From Chaetoderma sp. LZ-2023a (Eukaryota > Mollusca > Caudofoveata > Chaetodermatida > Chaetodermatidae), in NCBI GenBank assembly GCA_034401795.1, contig CM067373.1, positions 86,585,023 to 86,649,022 of the forward strand: a stretch of 64,000 nucleotides of DNA, in the 5' to 3' direction. The translations under genes and the position numbers were made by a program. Below the pieces are notes generated by a model. It worked only from the letters and a program-made list of their open reading frames with translations. It searched no databases and had not been told where the DNA came from. This document shows positions 2,276 to 64,000 of the stretch, piece by piece; the stretch's first letter is position 1, and each line of letters begins with the position of its first letter.

Positions 2276-3632
2276 TCATTCTGTTATCTCGCTTTTACTA
2301 TCAGAGTCCATGGGTAATGGGCCATTCGGCAATCGTTTTTGCTGCTGACATGTTGGATGAATGGCGCTACGATTAGCAGGGCGACTTCTAGCTGGTGGTC
2401 TGTCTGTCTGTTCACTTTCTGACGTGGTGGTTATGCCACTCACAGGGGTATCGGTAGATACGGGATCAGATCTATTACTTAATGTTAACACATTTTGCAA
2501 GCTTTCTGTCACTTCTTTACTATCACTTTCAGAAACAATAACACCATTTTCATCATTGTTAGTTGCATGTGTCGGAGGACTAGCTAGTGCTTCGGATTCG
2601 AGTCCAGAAGATTGACCCGGTCCGCTTAACTCTTTTTCCGAGGTCTCCCCTCCTGATGCACGCGCATTATCTAACTCCGCTCTCTCCTTGGCATCATCTC
2701 CATAGTCTGAACTATATGTCCTTTTATAATACTCAATCTGACCGTCTGACCAATACATCCGATGACCTAATGGACCATCCGAATCCTGTCTGCTTAAAAC
2801 AAATGGATCTTCAGAACTGTACTTTCTATGTCCATCTGGATCAGACTCTTTACCAGAACTATACTTTCTATGATGACCCCGCTCATCTGAGCTCGACCTA
2901 TCACAATCTCTATAGGAACGATCAGAATATTCACTGTCGGAAAACTCTCGGCTACCACGGCCACGCCCCTGCCTATCGTAATCACGGTCACTATCAGTTC
3001 TCCGTTCACTACCTGTATTGCTGCGATCATCAGAATAATACCTATCACCACTCCGCCTTCTGTCACCATGGTAACTGCTACGACTATCTGAACTGTAAGA
3101 ATCATAATCGTCCCGCCTTCCCTCTGAGCTGTATCTTCGTTTTTCCGGGCTTTCATCGGAATATTTGTCATCATGCTTCCCCTCCTCGTTTTTGTCTGAA
3201 TGCGTGTTAACAACAACTTCATCACCTTCATCAGAATCTTTGCGTACAGGTCTGGGTGCCTCATGTTCATCAGCTGATATGTAAGCTATATCATCATCAT
3301 CAGCTTGGAGAAAAATTTTCATTTGCTTGAGTCTCTCTTCCTTTACATCATCAGATTCTTCCTCAATATGTGGTTGAGTGGTCTCAGGTTCTGCATCTTT
3401 TGGTTCAGGTTGACAGGACTCCACCTCAAACACGTCATCATCAGCATTCTTTGTGTCATCTTCAGCTTTATCCTCCTCTTCTTCATCTTCAGGTTCATTC
3501 TTTTGCGCTACACCCACCAAGTCTTTAAGCATAACGCTGATTGTAAGAAAGTCAGTTGGGTCGACGAGATCAATTGGTCGTTCATCATCTTCATTTGTGA
3601 TTCTAGGATCTGCACCCTTCTGCAGCAAAAAC
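2276..3632 (-). CDS. PPP1R27: PPP1R27-like, coding exon 3 (last ankyrin unit and long charged tail)
   Basis: Encodes residue 108 (last base) to 559 and the stop TGA at 2278-2276. It opens with the third ankyrin unit (FLLQKGADPRITNEDDE, 109-125) and the family motif IDLVDPTDF. It then runs into an acidic block near residues 150-180, a region around 250-410 dominated by Ser, Arg, Asp and Tyr in SSD/RRYSS/DRDY-type runs, and a Ser/Thr-rich end. The tail is predicted to be disordered, has many potential kinase sites, and has no counterpart in the short vertebrate protein. An uninterrupted frame of over 1.3 kb amid decayed repeats argues for selection. The acceptor is GTACAG before 3632. Opposite-strand frames here are shadows of the repetitive codons. 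Confidence 0.85.
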
Positions 3633-3726
3633 CTGTACAAGTATAATATTAACATTACATTAAAGTGGTATTGAATTTAGCATATCTTTAACCTTCAGCA
3701 CCGAAATCCCAGTATGTATGAAAGTG

Positions 3727-14924: not shown

Positions 14925-15022
14925 TTTGACTAAAAATCATTGCTGCCTTAGGCAGCAACAAATTTCATTGCTGCCTAAGACAGCAACAACTTTCAATCAA
15001 ATACATTTCAAAATATTTTAAA
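14925..15022. repeat. Family A hairpin with duplicated inner stem
   Basis: GCAGCAACA and TTGCTGCCT stems are present twice in the loop region, as in the copy at 27560. Confidence 0.65.
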
Positions 15023-16874: not shown

Positions 16875-18327
16875 TCACCGATTTCGCCATTTTCTCCTTA
16901 CATTAAGACCAGGAAGCCACTCCCGTAGCCATCGATGCCAGACGTGCTTCACAAGTTCCTGAATCCGTCTCCACCGCTTACGAGAATTAAAGTCTGTGTA
17001 GTCAACCGATGTTGGAGCGAACTGACCTCCAACGTGTCCATGCAAAACATGGTTGGGAGTCAAAGGAGTGTCATCCTCTGGGTTAGCCGTTTGATATATC
17101 AATGGTCTGGAATTTATAAGTGCTTCCGCTCCTGTAAACGCTGTCATTAACTCTTCATCTGTGACATCAGCGTTTCCCAATATGGCATAAATTGCTCTTT
17201 TGGCTGACTTTATCATTGTCTCATGTACACCACCGTGGTGCCAGTGGAGGATTAAAATGCCATTGTATTCCTTGATTTGCTGTGCATTCCTCTAGCTGGT
17301 TAGCATCAAGTGCAGCAACTAATCCACGAAGTTCTTTAATTGCTCCAATGAAGTTTGTACCATTATCGGATAATACTTCTAAAGGCAGCCCTCTGCGATT
17401 CACCATCCGATAAAATGCATTTAGAAAGGAATCTGTATCCAGTCCAAAGGCTACCTCAAGGTGAACGGCTCTCGATACAAGACATGTGAACAGACAGAGG
17501 TAGCGTTTTAGGCGATGCTTACCTCGTCCTTGCTTGGTAATGAATGGCCCTCCGAAATCAACTGCAACTCGAGCAAAGGCATATAACGGAGTTTCTAGAC
17601 GTACTCGTGGGAGTGGTGCCATGATCTGCATACTAACTTTAGCTTTCCGTCGTCGACATCCACTACATTCTTTTTCCCACTCTCGAATCTCTTCCCAGCC
17701 AGAAATAATCCAATATCGTGATGATAAATCAGCCAGCACCTGATTTGTGCCACCATGCTGCTGCTTCTCATGATGTTATTTGACGATTAGTTTTGTTATT
17801 TTATTCTTTCGTGGTAATATTACTGGGAATCGTACATCATGTGATAAGAACTCGGCATGTTTCAACCTCCCATCACACCTCATAAGACCATCTTCATCGA
17901 TCCGAGGATTCAATGGAAGCAGCTTACTGCTGTGACTAAGTCCTCTTCCATGTACAAGATCTTTGTACTCATCAGGAAATGCATGCTGTTGAATTGTCTT
18001 TAGAATCTGTATCTCTGCATCGATATTCTCTGCTGGAGTCAGTTCACCAGATTTCCGATCAGACCTATGTGCATGACAGTTATCGATGAAGCGAGTAACC
18101 CATGCAGTTACCCATACGAGGTGCAACCAACCTGAATAACGAAGAGGGTTCAAGCGGCTATCTTCTAATTTCTGAATTGTCATGAGTGACACAGTTGAGT
18201 ATGGTCCATCTACTACTATTGATGACTGACATATTTTAGATTCATCGTTTACATGTGCCCCCTTCTCAACACGATTCTGAGGCCAATCTTGTTCCGTTTT
18301 CAGAAGGAAGTTCGTCCTGTCAACCAC
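16875..18327 (-). pseudogene. BEL/Pao integrase
   Basis: 18327-17776 covers the linker and N-terminal part. 17739-17221 has a CSGCRRRKAKVS zinc-binding remnant, ARVAVDFGGPF (catalytic Asp) and EVLSDNGTNFIGA (second Asp). The catalytic Glu lies in VHETMIKSAKRA, in the frame starting at 17216, after a frameshift near 17221. Integration would be abolished by the stops at 17740-17775 and 17220. Confidence 0.85.
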
Positions 18328-18375
18328 ATGTCATCAGTCGACAGTTTCATTACTGATACCCCTCGTGAAGCCTGG

Positions 18376-19188
18376 TCAGCAGGATTCTTCTGTGTGGGAA
18401 ACATAGCGCCACTGCTCCGGTGATGTCAAACTTTGGATTTCGCCAACACGATTTGCTACAAATGGTTTCAAGTTCCTACTTCGACTTCGAATCCACCACA
18501 ATACATTCAGGCTATCAGACCAGAATATAACATTCTTCATGGAGATCTCTAGGTCAGCAGTCACAGATGCTGTCAGCCGTAAACCTAGAATAGTGGCCAT
18601 CATCTCTAGGCGTGGTATGCTTGTCGATTTCAATGGAGCAACACGTGTCTTCGATGCAACAATACGACATGATATATGCCCATTGATATAAACCGATCTG
18701 TAGTAAATGACAGCTCCATATGCATCCTGAGACGCGTCAACAAATGTGTGTAACATTGCCTCAGTCACCTCTGCTCCAACAGTCATCTGCAGACATCTAG
18801 GGACCCGAATACTGGCTAGCTTGTCCAACTCCATGAACTACATCTGAGACTTGGTAGTAAGGCTGTCATTAAGCATGCCATCCCAGTTCAAACCAGCAGA
18901 CCACATTTCTTGCAACATGATCTTTTGACGAATTGTGAATGGAGATAGAAAGCCCAACGGATCAAACAACGATGCAATCTTTTTCAGAAAGTTTCTCTTA
19001 GTATACTGAAACTTGTCATCAACTGTACTAAAGCGAAAGCAAAACATGTCATCTTCTGCTTGCCACATTACTCCAAGAGTTTTGATCGATGGTAGTTGAT
19101 CGTCCAGATCCATCTCTGATGCTCTGTTTTCTATTGGTATCTTGTCTAGCCCAGCCACTGAGTTAGATAACCATTTTTGTTCTTTCAT
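18376..19188 (-). pseudogene. BEL/Pao RT connection and RNase H
   Basis: 19188-18838 carries RT thumb/connection sequence with FLKKIASLFDPLGFLSPFTI, a hallmark of BEL/Pao. 18834-18376 carries FVDASQDAYGAVIYYRS (RNase H first Asp), IPRLEMMATILGLRL (Glu) and FWSDSLNVLWWI (Asp). A stop at 18837 separates the two. Confidence 0.85.
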
Positions 19189-19199
19189 TCCTGCACTGG

Positions 19200-20150
19200 A
19201 TCATAATTCTGATAACTGATGGTACAGCTTAATCCCTTGGCTGTCGTTCATAACAGTCCATGCTGTCGTCCATGTATGTCGATTTCAATACAGTGTCAGC
19301 TGCCATGAGATATTTCTCTCTTTGATTTTGCATGTTCTTGAGTTACAAATTGGGCTAGAAATGGCGAAGAATTGATCCCAAATACGATGCGATTAAATTC
19401 ATATTCATCTGGAGGCTGGTGTTGACATAAGTCTCTCCATAGAAATCTATGAAAAGGCCGATCGTCTGCCGCTATTTCGATCTGCAGGTACATTTCAGAA
19501 ATGTCACATACCAATGCTATTGGTTTCTTCCGGAAACGAAGTAGGACATCCATAAGATGTCGCTGTAACCTTGGGCCTTGATGGATAACATCATTGAGTG
19601 ATACATCGGCCGATCTTGCGGATGCATCAAAGACAACGTGTAACTTCGTTGTCTCCTTGTCCGGTCTAACAACTGCGAAGTGTGGTATGTACCACATGTT
19701 TGTCGGTATCTCCTCTGTTTTTGCGACTTTACGAACATAGCCTTTCTCTATACATCTGCTAATTGTGTTGGCATATGCTGTTCCAACATCTCGTACCTTT
19801 AGCAGACGTTTCTCAGTATTTTCAAGTCGCTGCAGTGCCATTTTGTAGTTTGGCTGCAAGGTTGGTGCACCATCTACCCAAGGTATTCCGATTTGATAAC
19901 GCATATTCTTGTATTGTTGCGAGCTTTTCACCTTCTCGAGCACGACCTTGTCCTCCAGTGTAACTGCATTGGCATCAGAAACAACTCCACTTGATTCAGT
20001 TTCCCGAAACATCTGTAAAGTCTCATTCAGACCTCGATCGTCAATAAAGTACGTTTGAATAAAATTGGTATGAATAACTGACCCGATCTTTCCATCTGAA
20101 CTCGGGATGCATGTCCATCCTAACGGAGTCAACCGTGCCACTAGTTCTCC
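19200..20150 (-). pseudogene. BEL/Pao reverse transcriptase
   Basis: Frame 20141-19296 contains MWYIPHFAVVRPDKETTKLH, VVFDASARSADVSLND, ALVCDISEMYLQIEI (first catalytic Asp) and EFNRIVFGINSSPFLAQFV. The YMDD catalytic box lies at 19276-19265, after a frameshift/stop near 19296. The following codons shift again before 19188. All RT palm motifs are recognisable, but the polyprotein is interrupted. Confidence 0.85.
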
Positions 20151-38084: not shown

Positions 38085-39246
38085 CTGATCGCGTAGTGGT
38101 TGGTATCATTACTCGGGACAAGGGATGGAATTCTCTCCTACTCTGAATACTACCCTCAATCTCAGTGGTCTCTGCATTTAGATTTAGGTCTAAAGGGCTT
38201 AGTTGGTGAGGGGTTAATTGACCTTGCCATTCTGTAAGGATATGCTCATCTTCAGGTGGTATATCAGGTAGTGGCGATTCGCATGTTCTTCTAAGATGTC
38301 GTCTATTTCTTCTCAGCCTTTGGGCCTCATCAGTCTCAATGTTGTAGGACCGCTAGTTTAGCTGCTCAATCACTCTACCTCTTTTCCATGCTTTATCACC
38401 AAGCTGATTGGGTCTTATTCTCACAATGTCACCCTTTTCGAGTGCCGGCCTGTCTTTTGATGTTCTATTATAACAGTCTTCTTGCCTCGCCTGGTCTCTT
38501 CGCAACTTCTCGACAATATCACTCCTGTCTACCTCAGACATGAGAAGTTCATGTGATTTAGGCAACAATGTCTTGGTTCTGTGCCCAAAAAGCATTTGGG
38601 CTGGGCTTAGGTCAGTCCTCTGTTGGGGAACATTCCTGATGTGCAGTAATGCCAAATAAAAATCTCTACCTGATTTTGCTGTCTTCATAAGCAACTTCTT
38701 TGCAGACTTTACTGCAGACTCCGCCTTCCCGTTCGAATGATGGTAATGAGGAGAACTTGTCTTGTGCGTGATGTCCCAATCCTTCATGAATCACTGGAAG
38801 TCACTTGATGTGAACTGCAGTCCACAGTCACTTACTATAACATCCAGCTTTCCATAACGTGCAAAATGGGTCTTGCATTTGTGAATTACTCCTTTTGCAG
38901 TTGTATCATAAAGATGATCTAGTTCCCAGAAGTTTGAATAGTAGCAAACTGTGACCATGTAAGATTTCTGTTCAAACGTGCGGAGATCAATGCCCACCGT
39001 CTGCCAGTGTCTTTCTGGAACTTCAGAGCATTTAAGGGTCTCCTTAGGCCGAGATATATCAAATTCTCTGCACACTGCACACTTCTGCACCATCTCATGT
39101 ATGTCATTGGTCATGCCAGGCCAATAGACATAATCTCGAGCTAATCTCAGGCAACCATCAACGCCACTATGACTGCCCTGAATCTCATTCATGGTCTGCT
39201 TCTTCATGCTTTGAGGAATCACTAGCCACTCTCCTCTAAATATCAA
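38085..39246 (-). pseudogene. Gypsy integrase
   Basis: 39246-38791 has SHSGVDGCLRLARDYVYWPG with KCAVC (HHCC domain), GIDLRTF (Asp) and IVSDCGLQFTSSDFQ (second Asp). A stop at about 38788-38790 follows. The frame 38787-38353 goes on with SSPHYHHSNGKAESAVKSAK, which holds the catalytic Glu, and a C-terminal KGDIVRIRPNQLG. Beyond a stop at 38352, RSYNIETDEAQRLRRNRRHL and further tail codons continue to about 38085. In SDCGLQ the usual Asn is Cys. Confidence 0.85.
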
Positions 39247-53829: not shown

Positions 53830-55500
53830 GCGAGTAATTTTCACAAAGCAGATGTTTACCATTCTACCTGTTGTATATCTAAAATCGCGCTGATCATTTT
53901 GAAAGCAATTTGACTGTAGGCCGTTGCCGCTACACGTTGTCTTAATATATTCATCTATTGTAAAGCCGTAATCGGATTATTAAACTAACGCGTTTAAGGA
54001 GCCATAAAAACTAATCAAAAGAGAGATTTAAAAAGGCATCTTCGGGTGAATTGCTGCTAATCAAATTTATAAAATAGGAAATTAATACCTATCTCAATGA
54101 CCCACTATTCCAAACTAAAGTATCAGCTTTCGTGCTTGAAAAAGAATGGGATTTTGGTTTGATTTTTAGAAGGTTGATTCAAATCTATCTCGGGATTTTG
54201 GTTGGGTTTTGAAAGGATTAATAATTTAAATCAAACATTTTGAGTGAAAACAGTTAATTTTCGCTGTTGCTGTTGACTCATGAGCATTTTAATAACGACA
54301 CATATATTACGATCACTAACACAATGTTTGAATTACTGTCCTATTTTGAGAAGAAAGACAACACCACACATTTTTCACACACCTATACAAACATATTCAC
54401 AAAAATCGTAAATTGATTATTACCTCTACCAATGTTATTATAACGTTAAATGCTGAAGACTGAAGGATGCGCTCTACTAATATATTAGCCTATTCTATTT
54501 CAATAAAAAAAACCTGCTACTAAAGCACACATACATATTTGATCTGTTAATTATTTTAAAACTAATTTGTCTGAAACTTGTTGCTGCCTTATGCAGCAAC
54601 AAGTTTCAGTCAAATTAGTTTAAAAATAATCACCGACGCTCAATCTCGATCATTTAATAAATATGCCTATTACTTACTAAAGATACACATAAAATGAAAC
54701 GCTTATACCGCAATCTTGTTCTAAATAATTGAATTAGGTCCGTGTTTATCGCACATCTACACAAGTGTGTACACCACCCGAATGATACGCAGCAACAACA
54801 CGCCGTGTGAAATTAAAATTTACATTTAAATTCGTACGATTATTGAACCTGAAATTTCACCCAGCTTGTAGCTCTGATGTATTGATTCAGGGTTTTAATC
54901 TTTTGAACTTGGACATTTTATTCTCGGAACTGCAAGTTGAAAGTTGATTCGAATACAATTAACAAGGCCTAGACTTCAAGCATGGTTGCAATAAATTACG
55001 CGACATTTCATACGTCTTCAATGAAGAACCGTGCAGCTGTCACAAATTCGATATGATTTGATTATTTCATTATACCTAGTCACTATACCGAAAAGTTTAG
55101 CACAAATTTAAGCTGAATTCAGCGGACTTTGAAAAAATAAACTCAGTTGGAGACACATTTATCAGAGGCCTATATCCATCCATCCATGGCTTGGGTAAAA
55201 GTTGTTGGCGTAACAGCTAAAACAGCATCGCCATTTTAAAATGAACAACTGTTATAAATTCTACCGGATTCAATCGGATTAAAATAATCGTTTTAGCATC
55301 TAGCATTAAAATGGGCGTTTATAATTGTGTGAGAGGTTGTGTGAGAGGAAACGATAAAATATTTCATGGCACGTTTCCTTGGTTGACAAGCTATAGAGAG
55401 ATATGCTTAGGCGCTAACTTGTTCCTCTGTTTGCACGATTTAAGTGCTCCACATATTTGTGGGTATGTTTGGGCGCCTGATACACATCGTTACAGACAAA
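53830..55500. other. AT-rich intergenic sequence with one family A hairpin
   Basis: Nothing else beyond the hairpin at 54543 and a decayed half-hairpin near 53893. Confidence 0.5.
54543..54633. repeat. Family A hairpin, near perfect
   Basis: Stem ACTTGTTGCTGC pairs with GCAGCAACAAGT. Arms are TTATTTTAAAACTAATTTG and CAAATTAGTTTAAAAATAA. Confidence 0.7.
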
Positions 55501-55861: not shown

Positions 55862-57290
55862 TTGGGTCAACTTTCAAGCAAAATCCATTTTTCTATCTCT
55901 GAATTTAGTTGGTATTTATTGACATTGTTATGAAGTGGTGATGATAACAAAATAAAACAAAATCTATATTTTACACAATCTCTAACGCGGCATGATAACT
56001 TTAAATAGATAAAGAACGTCAGGCGTGATTTCAGCAATGATTTCCAGGCAAATAAGTTTCAAAATATTTAACACAATTCCTGTAGGCCTATATTTATTTT
56101 GAAACGGAGACACTGGGATTTAAAGGGTGGTATGGTATGTCTGATCTATATATTAAAGTACCTTTAGAAAGTTTGACCAAATTGAACGCATCGATATAGA
56201 TAGTTATATTCAGCAAAACCTGCCGAAAAAGGCCACCCCACTGGCCACAAACAATTATTCACTATAACGGGCAGGTGGAGTCCTAATACAAGGGCATGAT
56301 CTCGGATACGAGTTTTGGAGGCAACGGATCGTAGTTTCTAAAAAACATGCATTCTTTCGAACACGCGTTAAAACCACGCACCATTTTTTGACAAAAATGC
56401 AGACGATCGCTAGAAGATAGGTTTCACTGCATCACCACATTAATGAATCAAATACATTATTTATGACTCTAATAAACGCAAAAAAGGTCTCCCCTTCGCC
56501 ACCTTTCCGTCACCCACCCGTACCGTCATTCATCAGTTAGCTATAATATTATACAGTTTATTATTTATTAACGACAGGTACGCTTTCTTCTCTGCCCAGC
56601 GATAGACCATACCGAGGCATAAAATGGAATATAAATAATTCTGATGTTTAATGATTCTTTCTTTATAGTGATGTACGTTAATAAAATTCTAAATTCTCAG
56701 AAAGCTGGTCTCGTTCACGGAAACAGACTAAGTAAGCTTGGAATCTGTTAACTATTTCGATAACAATTTAGCTAAAAGTCGTTGCTGCCTTAGGCAGCAA
56801 CGACTTTTAGTTAAATCGTTATTGAAATAATTAGCCTATGCTATATATACACAAAGTATACCTATTACGACCATAAGCATATGCTTATAGGCGAAATATA
56901 AAGAAAATGGTAAAATATTTAAGTTTCCATAGCGTGTGTCTATAGGATAGCCTTTACGCTGTATTTACTTACTTGTCTAACAATGACACCCTAACACACC
57001 CGCCGCCGCCGCCACCACCACAACCACCACAAGAATCATATCTATTTTATTCACAAACTGTCAGTTATTTATTTATATAGGCCTTACACGAATTAATTTG
57101 ATTTTCAGGTGCGCTGTAGGCCTACCTTTATTCGTTTGGAGTATTGACCGATTTTTTGCTGGATTTTCATTCGCGCTTGTGCTGCATATTTTGCTTACGT
57201 TATAGAAATACCGGTATTTTTAATGAATGGTGTAAATACGATAATGGTATGGATGGACTAATGGATAGATGGGATGGGAGAGGTGGTGGT
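55862..57290. other. AT-rich sequence with decayed family A halves
   Basis: Half-hairpin at about 56040-56070 and the near-perfect copy at 56745. A CCG/CCA run lies at 57000-57030. No gene seen. Confidence 0.45.
56745..56834. repeat. Family A hairpin, near perfect
   Basis: Stem AAAGTCGTTGCTGCC pairs with GGCAGCAACGACTTT around TTA. The arms have diverged together, keeping the pairing. Confidence 0.7.
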
Positions 57291-59738: not shown

Positions 59739-60644
59739 ATGATCTGGGTGCACGCCTCCCTGATACAAACGCCTTCGACCCACAGCTCAACAGTCATAGT
59801 GCCTCAGCGGCCAGCAGACTACAGAGAGAGAGAGAGAGAGTTCAGCGCTCACCCAGACTACCGATGGCATGGTGGTGACAACAGTGGTCTAGGGGTTATG
59901 TACGGTGACCCGAGACGTGACTACTCAGGATTCCCCTATCGAACCCCCCGACGAGTAGGCCGTCGGAAGACAGCGACATTCTCGTTCGATCCAGACTCCG
60001 ACCCTGGAGTGCTGGTGCAAAATATGCGCATCACTGGCTTACGGCAGGACTATCCAGATGGATGCAAGTACTCTATCCCACACACCACTTCAGGCCTCAC
60101 ACCAGCAGGGATCGTTCGGATCAACCAGTCCCTGGAAGCGCTGTGCTACTGCCTCCTTACGGCACAGACCCAGCTGCAGCATTCCATAGATGGTGTCAGC
60201 GGAGCAGAGGTCCAGGCCATGTTCATCAGTCTCGTTGAGGATATGATCATCGTGGCAGACCCCAGTAGTCTTATTGCTAAGTTCCAGCAGGGGTTGCAGA
60301 AGGCCCGTCGCAAACTTGACTTTGCTATTTCGCCACACCTATGGTTGATTCTGAGCAACATGATCGTGACCATCGAGGACCTCCAAGTCAGGGGCTATAA
60401 CAACATGATAGTCGAGGGGAGTTCCCCCCATGTCCACTTCAGCTTCAACATTGCCATCAATGCACCTATGCGTAGAACGAGCCATACCGTCATTCCGACC
60501 CTGACACTGCAGCCAGTCGACATGGCAGCTCCAGGCACCCCGACACTGCAGGCAGTCAACACGACACCGCTTCCCATGGTAGCTCTACATGTGGTATCAG
60601 GCCTAGCTATCATGGCGCTCGGGATCAGCCTACTCCGCCGCTAG
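59739..60644 (+). CDS. Virus-like ORF A, unknown protein with C-terminal membrane segment
   Basis: 301 codons with start at 59739 by default; the true start could be further in, as the first 40 residues include a GA-repeat-encoded RERERE run. The N-terminal part has a basic stretch PYRTPRRVGRRKTATFSFDP. The middle (about 120-230) is a mixed helical region with no motif known to me. The last 20 residues (VALHVVSGLAIMALGISLLRR) form one hydrophobic segment followed by Arg-Arg, fitting a tail-anchored or virion membrane protein. GC-rich third positions fit the rest of the cluster. It overlaps the convergent ORF B by 15 bp. Function unknown. Confidence 0.55.
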   Translation: MIWVHASLIQTPSTHSSTVIVPQRPADYREREREFSAHPDYRWHGGDNSGLGVMYGDPRRDYSGFPYRTPRRVGRRKTATFSFDPDSDPGVLVQNMRITGLRQDYPDGCKYSIPHTTSGLTPAGIVRINQSLEALCYCLLTAQTQLQHSIDGVSGAEVQAMFISLVEDMIIVADPSSLIAKFQQGLQKARRKLDFAISPHLWLILSNMIVTIEDLQVRGYNNMIVEGSSPHVHFSFNIAINAPMRRTSHTVIPTLTLQPVDMAAPGTPTLQAVNTTPLPMVALHVVSGLAIMALGISLLRR

Positions 60645-61118
60645 TAAATCAGCTATAAGACTATCCTGACTCTCTACAGTAGCAGTGTGGACCACGGTGA
60701 GAGACTGAACCAGCTTGGCATGCCCTATACCCGCTGCCAACATGCACATCCAAGGGCTGGAGGGTTCGGCAGCGCATCCTTTTTCCAGCTTGTAGTATCG
60801 CAGAGCCTTGTTCAGCTCTGGGTCCGGTGAGGCCATGGCGGTATGCAACTGCTGGAACACATCTGATGGATACTTCCGATCCTTGTAGAAACCTTTAGCT
60901 CGCAGGAGCTGCTCGACGAAACTCCCACCCTTGATAAGGTATTCGAGGAAGCAGATCTGTCCCTTGCCAATTCCTAGATAGAGCTTCATAGCTGTCAGCT
61001 CCTCTGTCGGCTCAGCACCGGAGGGCTGAGCGAGCTCATCTGGTGCCTTCTTCTTGTAGTCCTTCAACTCACTCTGGAAGACATCATAGTACTTCTCACA
61101 TAGCGTGAGCCCAGACAT
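60630..61118 (-). CDS. Virus-like ORF B, unknown helical protein
   Basis: 162 codons with Met at 61118. Predicted mostly helical, with charged KDYKKKAPDELAQ near the start and a Cys-containing LYLGIGKGQICFLEYLIKGG segment. No domain recognised. Its start is only 23 bp from the divergent ATG at 61142, so a tiny bidirectional control region lies between them. It overlaps ORF A tail to tail. Confidence 0.55.
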   Translation of the reverse strand: MSGLTLCEKYYDVFQSELKDYKKKAPDELAQPSGAEPTEELTAMKLYLGIGKGQICFLEYLIKGGSFVEQLLRAKGFYKDRKYPSDVFQQLHTAMASPDPELNKALRYYKLEKGCAAEPSSPWMCMLAAGIGHAKLVQSLTVVHTATVESQDSLIADLLAAE

Positions 61119-61141
61119 GTTTAAGATGTCTAAATAGAGAG

Positions 61142-61297
61142 ATGAATATTCCTGAGTACCAACCCGGCCACCTGGCAGACGCAGACTGGGAAGATCTTAT
61201 TAGCTCTCTCGACAGGGGATGCAGACGTTTAGCTGCATTGTATACTCAGTGCTTAAACAATGACGTCAACGGTACAGATCGTGAAGCAACTGCCTGA
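61142..61297 (+). CDS. Virus-like small ORF (51 aa)
   Basis: Starts MNIPEYQPGHLADADWEDLI and ends at TGA 61295-61297. The next ORF's ATG at 61260 lies inside it in another frame. No homologue recognised. Confidence 0.5.
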   Translation: MNIPEYQPGHLADADWEDLISSLDRGCRRLAALYTQCLNNDVNGTDREATA

Positions 61298-61629
61298 GAG
61301 CCAGGCGAGTCTTCAGAAGGTGGAGAACCTGCTGCGAACCAAGACAGAAGTTACTGACCAAAGCAAATCCTCTGGCAGTCCATGTCGCCAGTAACGTGGT
61401 GGCGAATGTGGCTGTGGTGAAGATGACAGGGGGAAATGAGGCTACAGTGGTGAGTGGGGTGGCTGGGCACTGTCTCGGAATAACTCACCCCATCCCAAAG
61501 ATCGCCCTCAGTGGTGCCTCATACACTGTTGCCGCCAAGATCATGGATGAACGTGCTATACTAATGGAGGCAGCAGTTCTAGGGCTAGCAACGAGTGCAA
61601 TGACTGAGATCATCGTCGCCTACGTTTAA
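61260..61629 (+). pseudogene. Virus-like ORF C, hydrophobic protein with frameshift
   Basis: First part 61260-61394 starts MTSTVQIVKQLPESQASLQK and stops at 61392. A frameshift near 61350-61375 is needed to enter the second part, which ends at 61629 and carries two hydrophobic segments (GVAGHCLGI... and AILMEAAVLGLATSAM). The continuity of sense on both sides of the shift shows that this was one gene of about 120 residues, probably membrane-associated. No family recognised. Confidence 0.5.
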
Positions 61630-61648
61630 CCCCTCTGAATAGTGAGAG

Positions 61649-61873
61649 ATGGATCACGAGACCTCTGCAGCATATGAGGCATGGCGTGCCAGAGGGCGGT
61701 GTGTAGTCCATAGTCGAGCACATGGACTGAGGATCACCAATGCCCGGGAATGGTGGACTGCCCACAAGGCGTGCCCCTGCAGAGAGGGCCAGTACCCTGA
61801 GCACTGCTACCTATTCACTTGGCCGACTGCGTGGGCTTCCTATGCCCAACTATTAAACTGGTGGTATGACTAG
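61649..61873 (+). CDS. Virus-like ORF D, small Cys/Trp-rich protein
   Basis: 74 codons, ATG at 61649, 20 bp after ORF C. Rich in Trp (6), Cys and His: AREWWTAHKACPCREGQY near the middle. Intact frame. No homologue recognised; the Cys pattern could bind a metal. Confidence 0.55.
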   Translation: MDHETSAAYEAWRARGRCVVHSRAHGLRITNAREWWTAHKACPCREGQYPEHCYLFTWPTAWASYAQLLNWWYD

Positions 61874-61893
61874 TAGGTTTAAGCCATCTGTAT

Positions 61894-62283
61894 ATGACTA
61901 TGACTCTGTCACTCACAGACCTGGAAAGTAAAGAGCTAGGCGATCTTGCTCAGTTGGGCAAGGCACGCCTAGGTTCAGAGGACACTGTTGCCCCTATCTC
62001 TTTCCTAGATTTCGATGAGAAGGGAGACCTGCGGGAGATCTGAGGTACCATCCCAGCCCGAGATCTCATTGGGAACACTGATACGGTAGGACAATCGGCC
62101 ATTAATAAGGCCAAGACTGTATACAAGGCGATGGGCATCAAGGAGAGGGCGACGATGCTCGGTATGCTCGGAATCGATGAGGCTGGAGCCATCAAGGTTA
62201 TGGCTGAGTCCTTTGTACAGGACCTGGTTAAGGATCTCCTGAAAAACCACGGAGCTCATTCAGACAGGATGGAGATAATCTGA
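61894..62283 (+). pseudogene. Virus-like ORF E, helical protein with one premature stop
   Basis: From ATG 61894, 49 codons (TLSLTDLESKELGDLAQLGK...) to TGA at 62041-62043, which breaks an otherwise continuous frame to the stop at 62281-62283. A single C-to-T change of CGA would explain the break. The second half has KAKTVYKAMGIKERATMLGM. The next frame (ORF F) may be its original C-terminus after a shift near 62230-62280. Confidence 0.55.
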
Positions 62284-62402
62284 AGATAGGCACCCTCGGC
62301 CTGAACAATATCACTGTCGACGGCCAAACAGGTGCTACCGCCAGCCTCCGGCTACCAGAGGTGAAGACGTCAGTGTTATTTGGTTTGCCGTTTAGAGAGT
62401 AA
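62232..62402 (+). pseudogene. Virus-like ORF F, start-less frame
   Basis: Open between stops at 62229-62231 and 62400-62402, with no ATG. Contains KIGTLGLNNITVDGQTGATA, a Gly/Thr/Asn-rich strand-like sequence. Its coding look and lack of a start imply a frameshift fragment, perhaps of ORF E. Confidence 0.45.
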
Positions 62403-62434
62403 TACTGTCATGAAACAAAAAAAATATATATACA

Positions 62435-62564
62435 GGTACAGTGAAAGTCGCCAAGAAGGCTAGTCAGACCATGTTCCTCATAACACCTGAGCTACGGTTT
62501 CTCGATGTGCTGAACTACCTCGGCCCAGGTATGGGGCAAGGCTTACGGGTGTACACAGCTTTAA
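62435..62564 (+). pseudogene. Family B DNA polymerase (PolB) sliver
   Basis: About 30 codons with the family signature FLDVLNYLGPG (around 62489-62529), the Asp-containing exonuclease/palm-region motif of protein-primed PolB of Polinton, adintovirus and linear-plasmid type. After a frameshift near 62529 the sense continues as KAYGCTQL (62538-62561) in another frame, then a stop. Everything else of the polymerase (usually about 1000 residues) is absent here. The left border is an AT-rich run and TATACAG at 62424-62435, unlike the GC-rich surroundings. Assignment is by motif recall; confident about PolB, less about which type. Confidence 0.7.
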
Positions 62565-62579
62565 GACCACAGGATAGTC

Positions 62580-62858
62580 ATGGCTTCCCGTGCATGTATC
62601 ATACAGATACTGGATGTACTAGACACTGTGGGTGCTGACACAGGCCCTCTACGCTATCTTCTCAGCTGCTGCTGGGATTTCATGCTTGATGCCTCCATCG
62701 CATCCTTCGTATCCACCAGAGCTGCAGGATTCCCCGCTCTGCAGGCGAAAGAGCTATTGCAGAAAGTACTGCCGTTTAGTCTCCCAGATATAGACAAGTC
62801 TACCGCTGACCAAGTGCTAACCATCCTCCGCATGCATGTCTGTACCATTCGACAGTAG
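62580..62858 (+). CDS. Virus-like ORF G, unknown
   Basis: 92 codons, start MASRACIIQILDVLDTV. Mostly helical with two hydrophobic stretches. Its end overlaps the start of the ATPase gene by 23 bp, typical of compact viral gene packing. No family recognised. Confidence 0.5.
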   Translation: MASRACIIQILDVLDTVGADTGPLRYLLSCCWDFMLDASIASFVSTRAAGFPALQAKELLQKVLPFSLPDIDKSTADQVLTILRMHVCTIRQ

Positions 62859-63486
62859 GCCGGCCGATGCTGGCCAGGTGGTGTTGATCATTGCCCCGTC
62901 AGGACACGGGAAAAACATCTTGCTGCAGGCTCTCCTGGCCGAACATCTACACTCTCAATACATCCTTCTGGTGTCTGACTCTGCCACTGAGGCGGTTGAC
63001 AGTAATGATCAACGGTACAATGGCCCACTCACCATGATGCAGAACCTGCAAGCACTGATGGAGAAGCTGCTGGCAGCCCGACTGACAGAACCACTTGTTC
63101 TAGTTATCTATGACCCTGCAATGGACCAGAAGACAGTCACCTACCTCAGCAACATCATCAGGCACATCCGGCACACAAAGATAACTGTCTCCATCCTCTT
63201 TCAGAAGATCTCACCGGACATCCGCCACAATGCCCGGTTATTATACTTCAGCTCCAAGTGTGGACTTGCCCTGCTCGAGACCATATGAGACAGCCTAACC
63301 CTCAAGGAGACCAAAGGGGACTTTATCGCAGGTGTGCAGAGGGCAGCTGAGCTGTACCGTTTCATCTTCAGCAACAAGAAGACAGGTGAGCTGTCACACT
63401 TTAAGCTATCTCTGGAAAAGGTGCAGACCTTCACCTACAAGCTGAATCCAGTCAGGAAACTAGCCTGCTCTATGCGTCATGGCTGA
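62836..63486 (+). pseudogene. Packaging ATPase (A32/FtsK-type) with in-frame stop
   Basis: Starts at ATG 62836 (or slightly upstream). Walker A is IIAPSGHGKN near residues 18-27, in which the usual Ser/Thr after GK is Asn. Walker B is LVLVIYDPAMD near 91-101. IRHIRHTKITVSILFQK near 117-133 matches the RH...SI..Q sensor motif, followed by RHNARLLYFSS. This is the signature of genome-packaging ATPases of Polintons, adenovirus-like and giant-virus-type DNA viruses. A TGA at 63286-63288 interrupts the frame, which then runs on with coding sense (KETKGDFIAGVQRAAELYRF) to 63486. Length of about 216 codons fits the family. It acts in virus assembly, driving DNA into the capsid. Confidence 0.8.
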
Positions 63487-63528
63487 CAGACTGAGCGGAG
63501 ACCACGGTGGTCTCTGCTGCAACTTTTT

Positions 63529-64000
63529 TCATCCATCAGAAGCTTCGTCCGCAGTCTCCGCTACTTCATCCACGGTCTTGGCTGCTTGAGGACCTTCCTC
63601 CATGGTCTCCGCTGCTTCTTCAGCAGTTTTGGCAGAAGCTACTTCGTCCGCGGTCTCCACTGCTACTTTGGCAGTTTTGGCAGAAGCTACTTCGTCCGCA
63701 GTCTCCGCTGCTACTTCAGCAGTTTTGGCAGAAGCCTGTGGCTTCTTCTTAAGATGTTACTTTCGCTGAAACTCTTCGTACTGATGGTCATCTTCTGGGA
63801 TTTTGTTAATCCGGTGTATCTGACGGTAGACCCACCTTCCCAATGAGGCCTTAGCATTCCCCTTCTTGTTAGGGGGGTGGGGGGGGGTTGATGAGGAAGT
63901 CCTTCCAGTCCTTTTCTGAGAATTTCACAAATGCATCCAGATCACTGGCCACTCTCCAGCGCCCTTTTGCGTTGAAGATGTTCTCAACAGCCTCCTTGCA
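63529..64000 (-). pseudogene. Virus-like ORF I, basic/Ala-Glu-rich protein, N-terminus off the window
   Basis: Minus-strand frame running in from the window edge and ending at TGA 63531-63529. It opens with AVENIFNAKGRWRVASDLDA and DAFVKFSEKDWKDFLIN, breaks at the C/G run of 63869-63888 (frameshift), continues with GRWVYRQIHRINKIPEDDHQ, has a stop at 63757-63759, then a tail of three tandem units of about 48 bp (63600-63745) reading AKTAEVAAETADEVAS-like. Opposite in strand to the ATPase and convergent with it (43 bp apart). The low-complexity tail resembles DNA-binding or core-protein tails only in composition. No family recognised. Confidence 0.5.

What the first reader, a model, noticed from the sequence alone, without database searches (positions are those of the whole stretch)
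59739..64000. Compact, decayed DNA-virus-like gene cluster with packaging ATPase and PolB remnant
In 4.3 kb there are nine or more small open frames on both strands with overlaps (60630-60644, 61260-61297, 62836-62858), a 23-bp divergent promoter space (61119-61141) and very little free sequence. This is unlike anything else in the window and typical of small DNA viruses. Two products are recognisable: an A32/FtsK packaging ATPase and a piece of protein-primed PolB. That pairing is known from Polintons/Mavericks, adintoviruses and relatives. However, I see no integrase, major capsid, penton or adenain-type protease, and the other proteins match nothing I know. Stops (62041, 63286, 63757) and frameshifts make this copy a fossil. 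It could represent a new group of endogenous virus in invertebrates.
Basis: partly seen in the sequence, partly recalled or inferred. Interest (0 to 1): 0.9.

Follow-up and report, generated by a model that had tools for sequence, protein, structure and literature searches.

The report
Decayed DNA-virus packaging gene cluster
A stretch of a eukaryotic genome carries the broken remains of a DNA virus, recognisable by the motor gene that packs viral DNA into its shell; relatives of the other genes were not found, so the virus cannot yet be named.

Summary
Observation largely right; interpretation partly supported. From about 59.75 kb to the window's end lies a 52% GC block in a 40% GC region. 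Its three longest ORFs (301, 162, 150 aa) exceed chance; six frames show strong codon-position bias (one inflated by a repeat). One gene is firmly identified: the 62836-63285 frame and the piece behind its stop (63289-63483) are parts of a broken viral genome-packaging ATPase (A32/FtsK-HerA class). A JGI protein is 90-92% identical to both parts; a 59%-identical relative passes the Pox_A32 cut-off, and its model's top PDB matches are packaging NTPases. The window copy is dead: in-frame stop, short deletion, altered Walker B. All four sequences in hand have Asn where Walker A usually has Ser/Thr. The PolB piece (my candidate: 62441-62635) rests on a recalled motif; no search confirmed it. Profile scans found no capsid, integrase or protease, but the element runs off the window. 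The 301- and 162-aa ORFs found no relatives. Best reading: part of an endogenized, decayed dsDNA virus of the packaging-ATPase lineage, family undetermined. Interesting, not yet a new kind.

The parts
59739..60644 (+). 301-aa ORFa; coding part probably starts at the Met at 59898; ends in a hydrophobic helix as in a membrane or minor virion protein (role inferred)
   Evidence: 0 of 1000 shuffles reach 301 aa; codon bias p=0.0003 from 59898, p=0.96 before; hydropathy 2.23 at residues 281-299; no significant relative
60630..61118 (-). 162-aa ORFb, divergent from the next gene, tail-to-tail overlap with ORFa
   Evidence: codon bias p=0.0003; no significant relative
61142..61297 (+). 51-aa ORFc, weak candidate
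   Evidence: bias p=0.13
61260..61629 (+). ORFd, two overlapping frames (first to 61391, second open 61285-61626), each with codon bias in the piece tested: probably one gene broken by a frameshift (inferred)
   Evidence: 61263-61349 p=0.002; 61351-61626 p=0.0003; no significant Pfam relative of either piece, no NCBIfam or PDB relative of the second
61649..61873 (+). 74-aa ORFe, weak candidate
   Evidence: p=0.33
61894..62402 (+). ORFf, frame interrupted by the stop at 62041 and perhaps a later frame change; only the middle piece has clear codon bias
   Evidence: 61897-62040 p=0.12; 62044-62280 p=0.0003; 62271-62396 p=0.31; no Pfam match of the three pieces
62441..62638 (+). candidate PolB-like piece (short motif resembling protein-primed DNA polymerases, recalled, unconfirmed), preceded by an AT-rich spacer at about 62410-62440
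   Evidence: translation; nothing significant in Pfam, PDB, NCBIfam, IMG/VR, phages, PHROGs; codon bias p=0.88
62580..62858 (+). 92-aa ORFg, weak candidate overlapping the ATPase start
   Evidence: p=0.12
62836..63288 (+). packaging ATPase, first part (Walker A and B), closed by an in-frame stop
   Evidence: class from its relatives
63289..63486 (+). packaging ATPase, C-terminal part behind the stop
   Evidence: 59/64 identical to P0001; 28/61 to P0002
63532..64000 (-). decayed minus-strand frames (three pieces; stop at 63757; a C-run where the frame may change) with a 48-bp tandem repeat coding an Ala/Glu/Lys-rich 16-residue repeat; runs off the window
   Evidence: no significant Pfam match

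Best explanation
This is part of an endogenous, inactivated dsDNA virus (or virus-like self-synthesizing element) in a eukaryotic nuclear genome. Its ancestor carried tightly packed small genes and a genome-packaging ATPase of the A32/FtsK-HerA class. By analogy with that class (inferred) the ATPase formed a ring at the capsid and used ATP to pump the genome in, while neighbouring orphan frames encoded minor virion, membrane or core proteins (inferred; ORFa ends in a hydrophobic helix). The copy now most likely does nothing: its ATPase is truncated and its Walker B site altered, and it is inherited passively. Shown: ATPase identity, its decay, the compositional block, codon bias of several frames. 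Inferred: that all frames belong to one insertion, the virion roles, and the virus type.
Against: Only the ATPase has any homologue; whether ORFa, ORFb and the rest travelled with it is not shown. ORF counts are not unique in the window. Ten pieces lack clear codon bias, counting the first 53 codons of ORFa. No capsid or other hallmark gene was recognised. Scans of IMG/VR and of GTDB genomes with the ATPase alignment confirmed no relative. VirB4 ties with B204 in the VIA list, and HerA and FtsK follow within about 1 Z unit, so the fold alone gives the superfamily only.
Confidence: 0.78

Rival explanations
1. It is a fragment of an ordinary Polinton/Maverick or adintovirus; the integrase, capsid, penton, protease and most of PolB lie right of 64000 or were lost.
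For: Such elements carry a packaging ATPase and occur as endogenous elements in animals (PMC4028283 passages; PMC11071308 section 4). An adintovirus FtsK-like protein is among the structural matches, rank 24, E=3.9e-7. The 62441 piece carries a short PolB-like motif (recalled).
Against: No PolB, capsid, integrase or protease profile in the frames scanned. Several large-virus ATPases rank above the adintovirus one. No IMG/VR relative of the ATPase.
Confidence: 0.45
2. It is a remnant of a nucleocytoplasmic large DNA virus or another larger virus, of which only an ATPase region survives.
For: Pox_A32 profile match of P0002. Of the 39 BFVD rows shown that name a virus, I count 30 as large nucleocytoplasmic viruses by name.
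Against: That library may simply hold more large-virus ATPases, so rank may be biased (inference). Very small overlapping genes suit a small genome better (inference). No other large-virus gene was recognised.
Confidence: 0.2
3. The ATPase and the surrounding frames are unrelated insertions (several captured pieces in a GC-rich stretch).
For: The PolB-like piece follows an AT-rich spacer and overlaps ORFg in another frame. Only the ATPase has relatives.
Against: GC stays at 0.46-0.57 per 250 bp from 59751 to 64000, and several frames abut or overlap.
Confidence: 0.2

Closest known systems
Poxvirus A32 / NCLDV packaging ATPases (PF04665)
   Same: Profile match of P0002 above cut-off; fold
   Different: 10-23% identity over the 50 BFVD rows shown; Walker A ends Gly-Lys-Asn instead of the usual Ser/Thr (consensus recalled)
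STIV/STIV2 B204 packaging NTPase (PDB 4kft, 4kfs, 4r2h)
   Different: 14-18% identity; from viruses of the archaeon Sulfolobus
Polintons/Mavericks and adintoviruses
   Same: Packaging ATPase in an endogenous DNA element; possible PolB scrap
   Different: No integrase, capsid, penton or protease recognised in the 4.3 kb held
Adomaviruses and 'meldviruses' (PMC11071296, passages and sections 13, 14, 16 read)
   Same: That paper reports a PacK (FtsK/HerA-like) ATPase in one clam-associated adomavirus, and sets of short ORFs in some others, and mixed gene modules among animal DNA viruses
   Different: No replicase or capsid is available here for comparison; I made no sequence comparison with them

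Membership tests
A32/FtsK-HerA viral packaging ATPase | Profile match to a packaging-ATPase family | tested here: met
   P0002 to PF04665, 29.7 against cut-off 22.8 bits; P0001/P0002 to PHROG 2666 about 1e-5. The window piece itself stays below the cut-off, 19.3 bits, and P0001 too, 18.4
A32/FtsK-HerA viral packaging ATPase | P-loop ATPase fold of the packaging type | tested here: met
   on a model of moderate confidence of P0002; VirB4, HerA and FtsK score alike
A32/FtsK-HerA viral packaging ATPase | Walker A core, Ala/Gly-x4-Gly-Lys | tested here: met
   4 of 4 sequences. The next residue is Asn in 4 of 4, not the usual Ser/Thr (consensus recalled), so activity needs a test
Polinton/Maverick | Protein-primed PolB | tested here: inconclusive
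   short recalled motif only; without significant match
Polinton/Maverick | rve integrase | tested here: inconclusive
   none in the frames scanned; element cut at 64000. The integrase-core match at 17224-17739 lies near a Pao peptidase and belongs to a retroelement
Polinton/Maverick | Double-jelly-roll capsid, penton and adenain-type protease | tested here: inconclusive
   none; ORFa model too poor to search, pLDDT 37.8; element cut
Polinton/Maverick | Terminal inverted repeats and target-site duplication | not testable with these tools
   right end lies outside the window
Adintovirus | PolB with OTU-like domain plus Hexon recognisable by BLASTp (definition from PMC11071296, section 16) | tested here: inconclusive
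   neither recognised in the 4.3 kb held; element cut
Bidnavirus | Parvovirus-type NS1 helicase and VP with PolB (definition from PMC11071296, section 13) | tested here: inconclusive
   no NS1 or VP profile; element cut

The most novel reading that the evidence does not exclude
A previously unrecognised lineage of small animal DNA viruses, known so far only from this genome fossil and three proteins on short public contigs, with its own set of orphan virion genes and a packaging motor whose P-loop ends in Asn instead of Ser/Thr, i.e. a packaging ATPase with altered metal coordination.
Probability: 0.25. Interest if true: 0.75.

Novelty: new member of a known kind. Interest (0 to 1): 0.5.

Why it matters
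Endogenous copies record DNA viruses that were never isolated. If orphan neighbours such as ORFa and ORFb recur beside this ATPase in other genomes, they would define a virus group by synteny and give new candidates for capsid folds. The Asn in the P-loop, shared by all four sequences in hand, poses a testable biochemical question about how a packaging motor binds its metal ion.

Tried and rejected
PolB: hmmscan of the piece against Pfam, NCBIfam and PHROGs, PDB phmmer (best E=0.98), IMG/VR scan, phage tblastn (3 records at E 2-3): nothing significant. Pattern scans of IMG/VR for related motifs gave 0, 5 and 10 stretches. Reading the frames around them by eye (no profile search) I recognised no PolB, so no reference set could be built. 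Against the PolB reading: two of the five stretches (L001, L005, the same 259-aa frame) carry a close likeness of the motif in a frame that I do not recognise as a polymerase, so the motif alone is weak evidence. I leave PolB unproven.

ORFa and ORFb: protein searches gave no hit among 1150 candidates at E<=1 and 95 candidates at E<=10. IMG/VR scans 8 and 27, phages (ORFa only) and PDB gave nothing significant. The single-sequence model of ORFa (pLDDT 37.8) was not searched. IMG/VR and GTDB scans for the ATPase and the phage collection had no confirmed relative; sequence search of the PDB with the ATPase gave only weak P-loop matches.

ORF number as evidence: rejected, because other segments reach the same counts. 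The simple permutation test of periodicity was replaced by a null that conditions on absence of stops; the verdicts changed little. No tRNA and no Rfam match at gathering scores in the window; no second copy of any of the 16 pieces in the window (tblastn E<=0.01).

Literature: the listings of searches showed no paper that I could match to this cluster; that is no proof of absence. PMC11071296: passages and sections 13, 14 and 16 read; PMC11071308: outline with abstract and section 4; PMC8363768 and PMC4028283: passages only.
Full report
What is there. From about 59.75 kb to the window's end the DNA differs from its surroundings: GC 0.523 against 0.405 and CpG o/e 0.55 against 0.75 (59739-64000 against 1-57000); no 4262-bp window in the first 59 kb exceeds GC 0.469. 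The three longest ORFs exceed chance: in 1000 dinucleotide shuffles of the block, 0 gave a longest ORF of 301 aa, 4 a second of 162 aa and 0 a third of 150 aa. The number of ORFs does not: 9 of at least 70 aa here, 1 to 9 in 13 other segments.

Which frames look like genes. Against random stop-free codons of the same composition, ORFa (whole and from 59898), ORFb, the second ORFd piece, the middle ORFf piece, the first ATPase part and the minus-strand repeat frame are at the test's floor (p=0.0003), and the first ORFd piece has p=0.002. Not clearly different from chance are the first 53 codons of ORFa (0.96), ORFc (0.13), ORFe (0.33), the outer ORFf pieces (0.12, 0.31), the PolB-like piece (0.88), ORFg (0.12), the second ATPase part (0.06) and two minus-strand pieces (0.32, 0.11). 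That the second ATPase part, a real gene piece by homology, misses significance shows that short pieces can fail this test. The minus-strand repeat frame is inflated by its 48-bp tandem repeat.

Decay. P0001 runs on where the window copy stops; the frame behind the stop matches P0001 at 59 of 64 and P0002 at 28 of 61 residues. The window copy also lacks four residues that P0001 has and has lost one Walker B acidic residue. Less broken relatives therefore exist. ORFd and ORFf look interrupted too, by a frame change and by a stop plus perhaps a frame change, but without relatives this is inference.

A peculiarity. All four sequences read Gly-Lys-Asn at the end of Walker A, where P-loops usually have Ser or Thr (recalled). 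The three relatives are 41 to 93% identical to the window piece, so it is not decay of one copy. I could not compare it with Polinton or adintovirus ATPases, whose sequences were not at hand.

PolB. The only candidate that I found is a 65-residue stretch at 62441-62635 with a short motif that resembles protein-primed polymerases from memory. Pfam, PDB, NCBIfam, IMG/VR, phage and PHROG searches gave nothing significant, the frame has no codon bias, and a close likeness of the motif occurs in an IMG/VR frame that I do not recognise as a polymerase. It may be a decayed scrap, a separate insertion or chance.

Everything else. ORFa ends in a hydrophobic helix and has no significant relative in Pfam, IMG/VR, PHROGs, the protein collection, NCBIfam, phages or PDB. 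ORFb likewise, phages not tried. The host side looks like eukaryotic nuclear DNA: a Pao retroelement on the minus strand at 17.2-20.1 kb (peptidase A17 above its cut-off, RT and integrase core below theirs) and an H2C2 integrase domain at 38.8 kb, palindromic MITE-like repeats and many microsatellites. I did not identify the host, and its genome could not be searched (genome search did not complete).

Conclusion. A dead, endogenous piece of a DNA virus of the packaging-ATPase lineage is well supported (0.78). That it is a Polinton or adintovirus is possible (0.45) but untested in its defining genes, because the element continues beyond 64000. That it is a new group is open (0.25).

Noticed in passing
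17221-20141: Pao-type retroelement pieces on the minus strand: peptidase A17, with RT and integrase-core matches below their Pfam cut-offs.
   Followed up: partly
38791-39246: Integrase H2C2 zinc-binding domain on the minus strand, another retroelement remnant.
   Followed up: partly
54542-54630 and 56743-56833: Two palindromes (arms 95% and 90% complementary) that are 75% alike, like a MITE or hairpin repeat family; by eye, 28-bp tandem units at 14937 and 27579 share their core.
   Followed up: no
2276-3655: 459-aa minus-strand ORF, by eye acidic at the start and rich in Arg/Ser/Asp/Tyr later, no Pfam match at E<=0.001: probably a disordered host exon.
   Followed up: no
63604-63735: 48-bp tandem repeat encoding on the minus strand an Ala/Glu/Lys-rich 16-residue repeat, like a coiled-coil or core-protein tail.
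   Followed up: partly
60062-60373: Secondary frames open on both strands inside ORFa (58 aa plus, 82 and 75 aa minus), probably by-products of GC-rich coding DNA.
   Followed up: no
L001 and L005: IMG/VR contigs sharing a 259-aa frame with a close likeness of the window's PolB-like motif; not identified.
   Followed up: no
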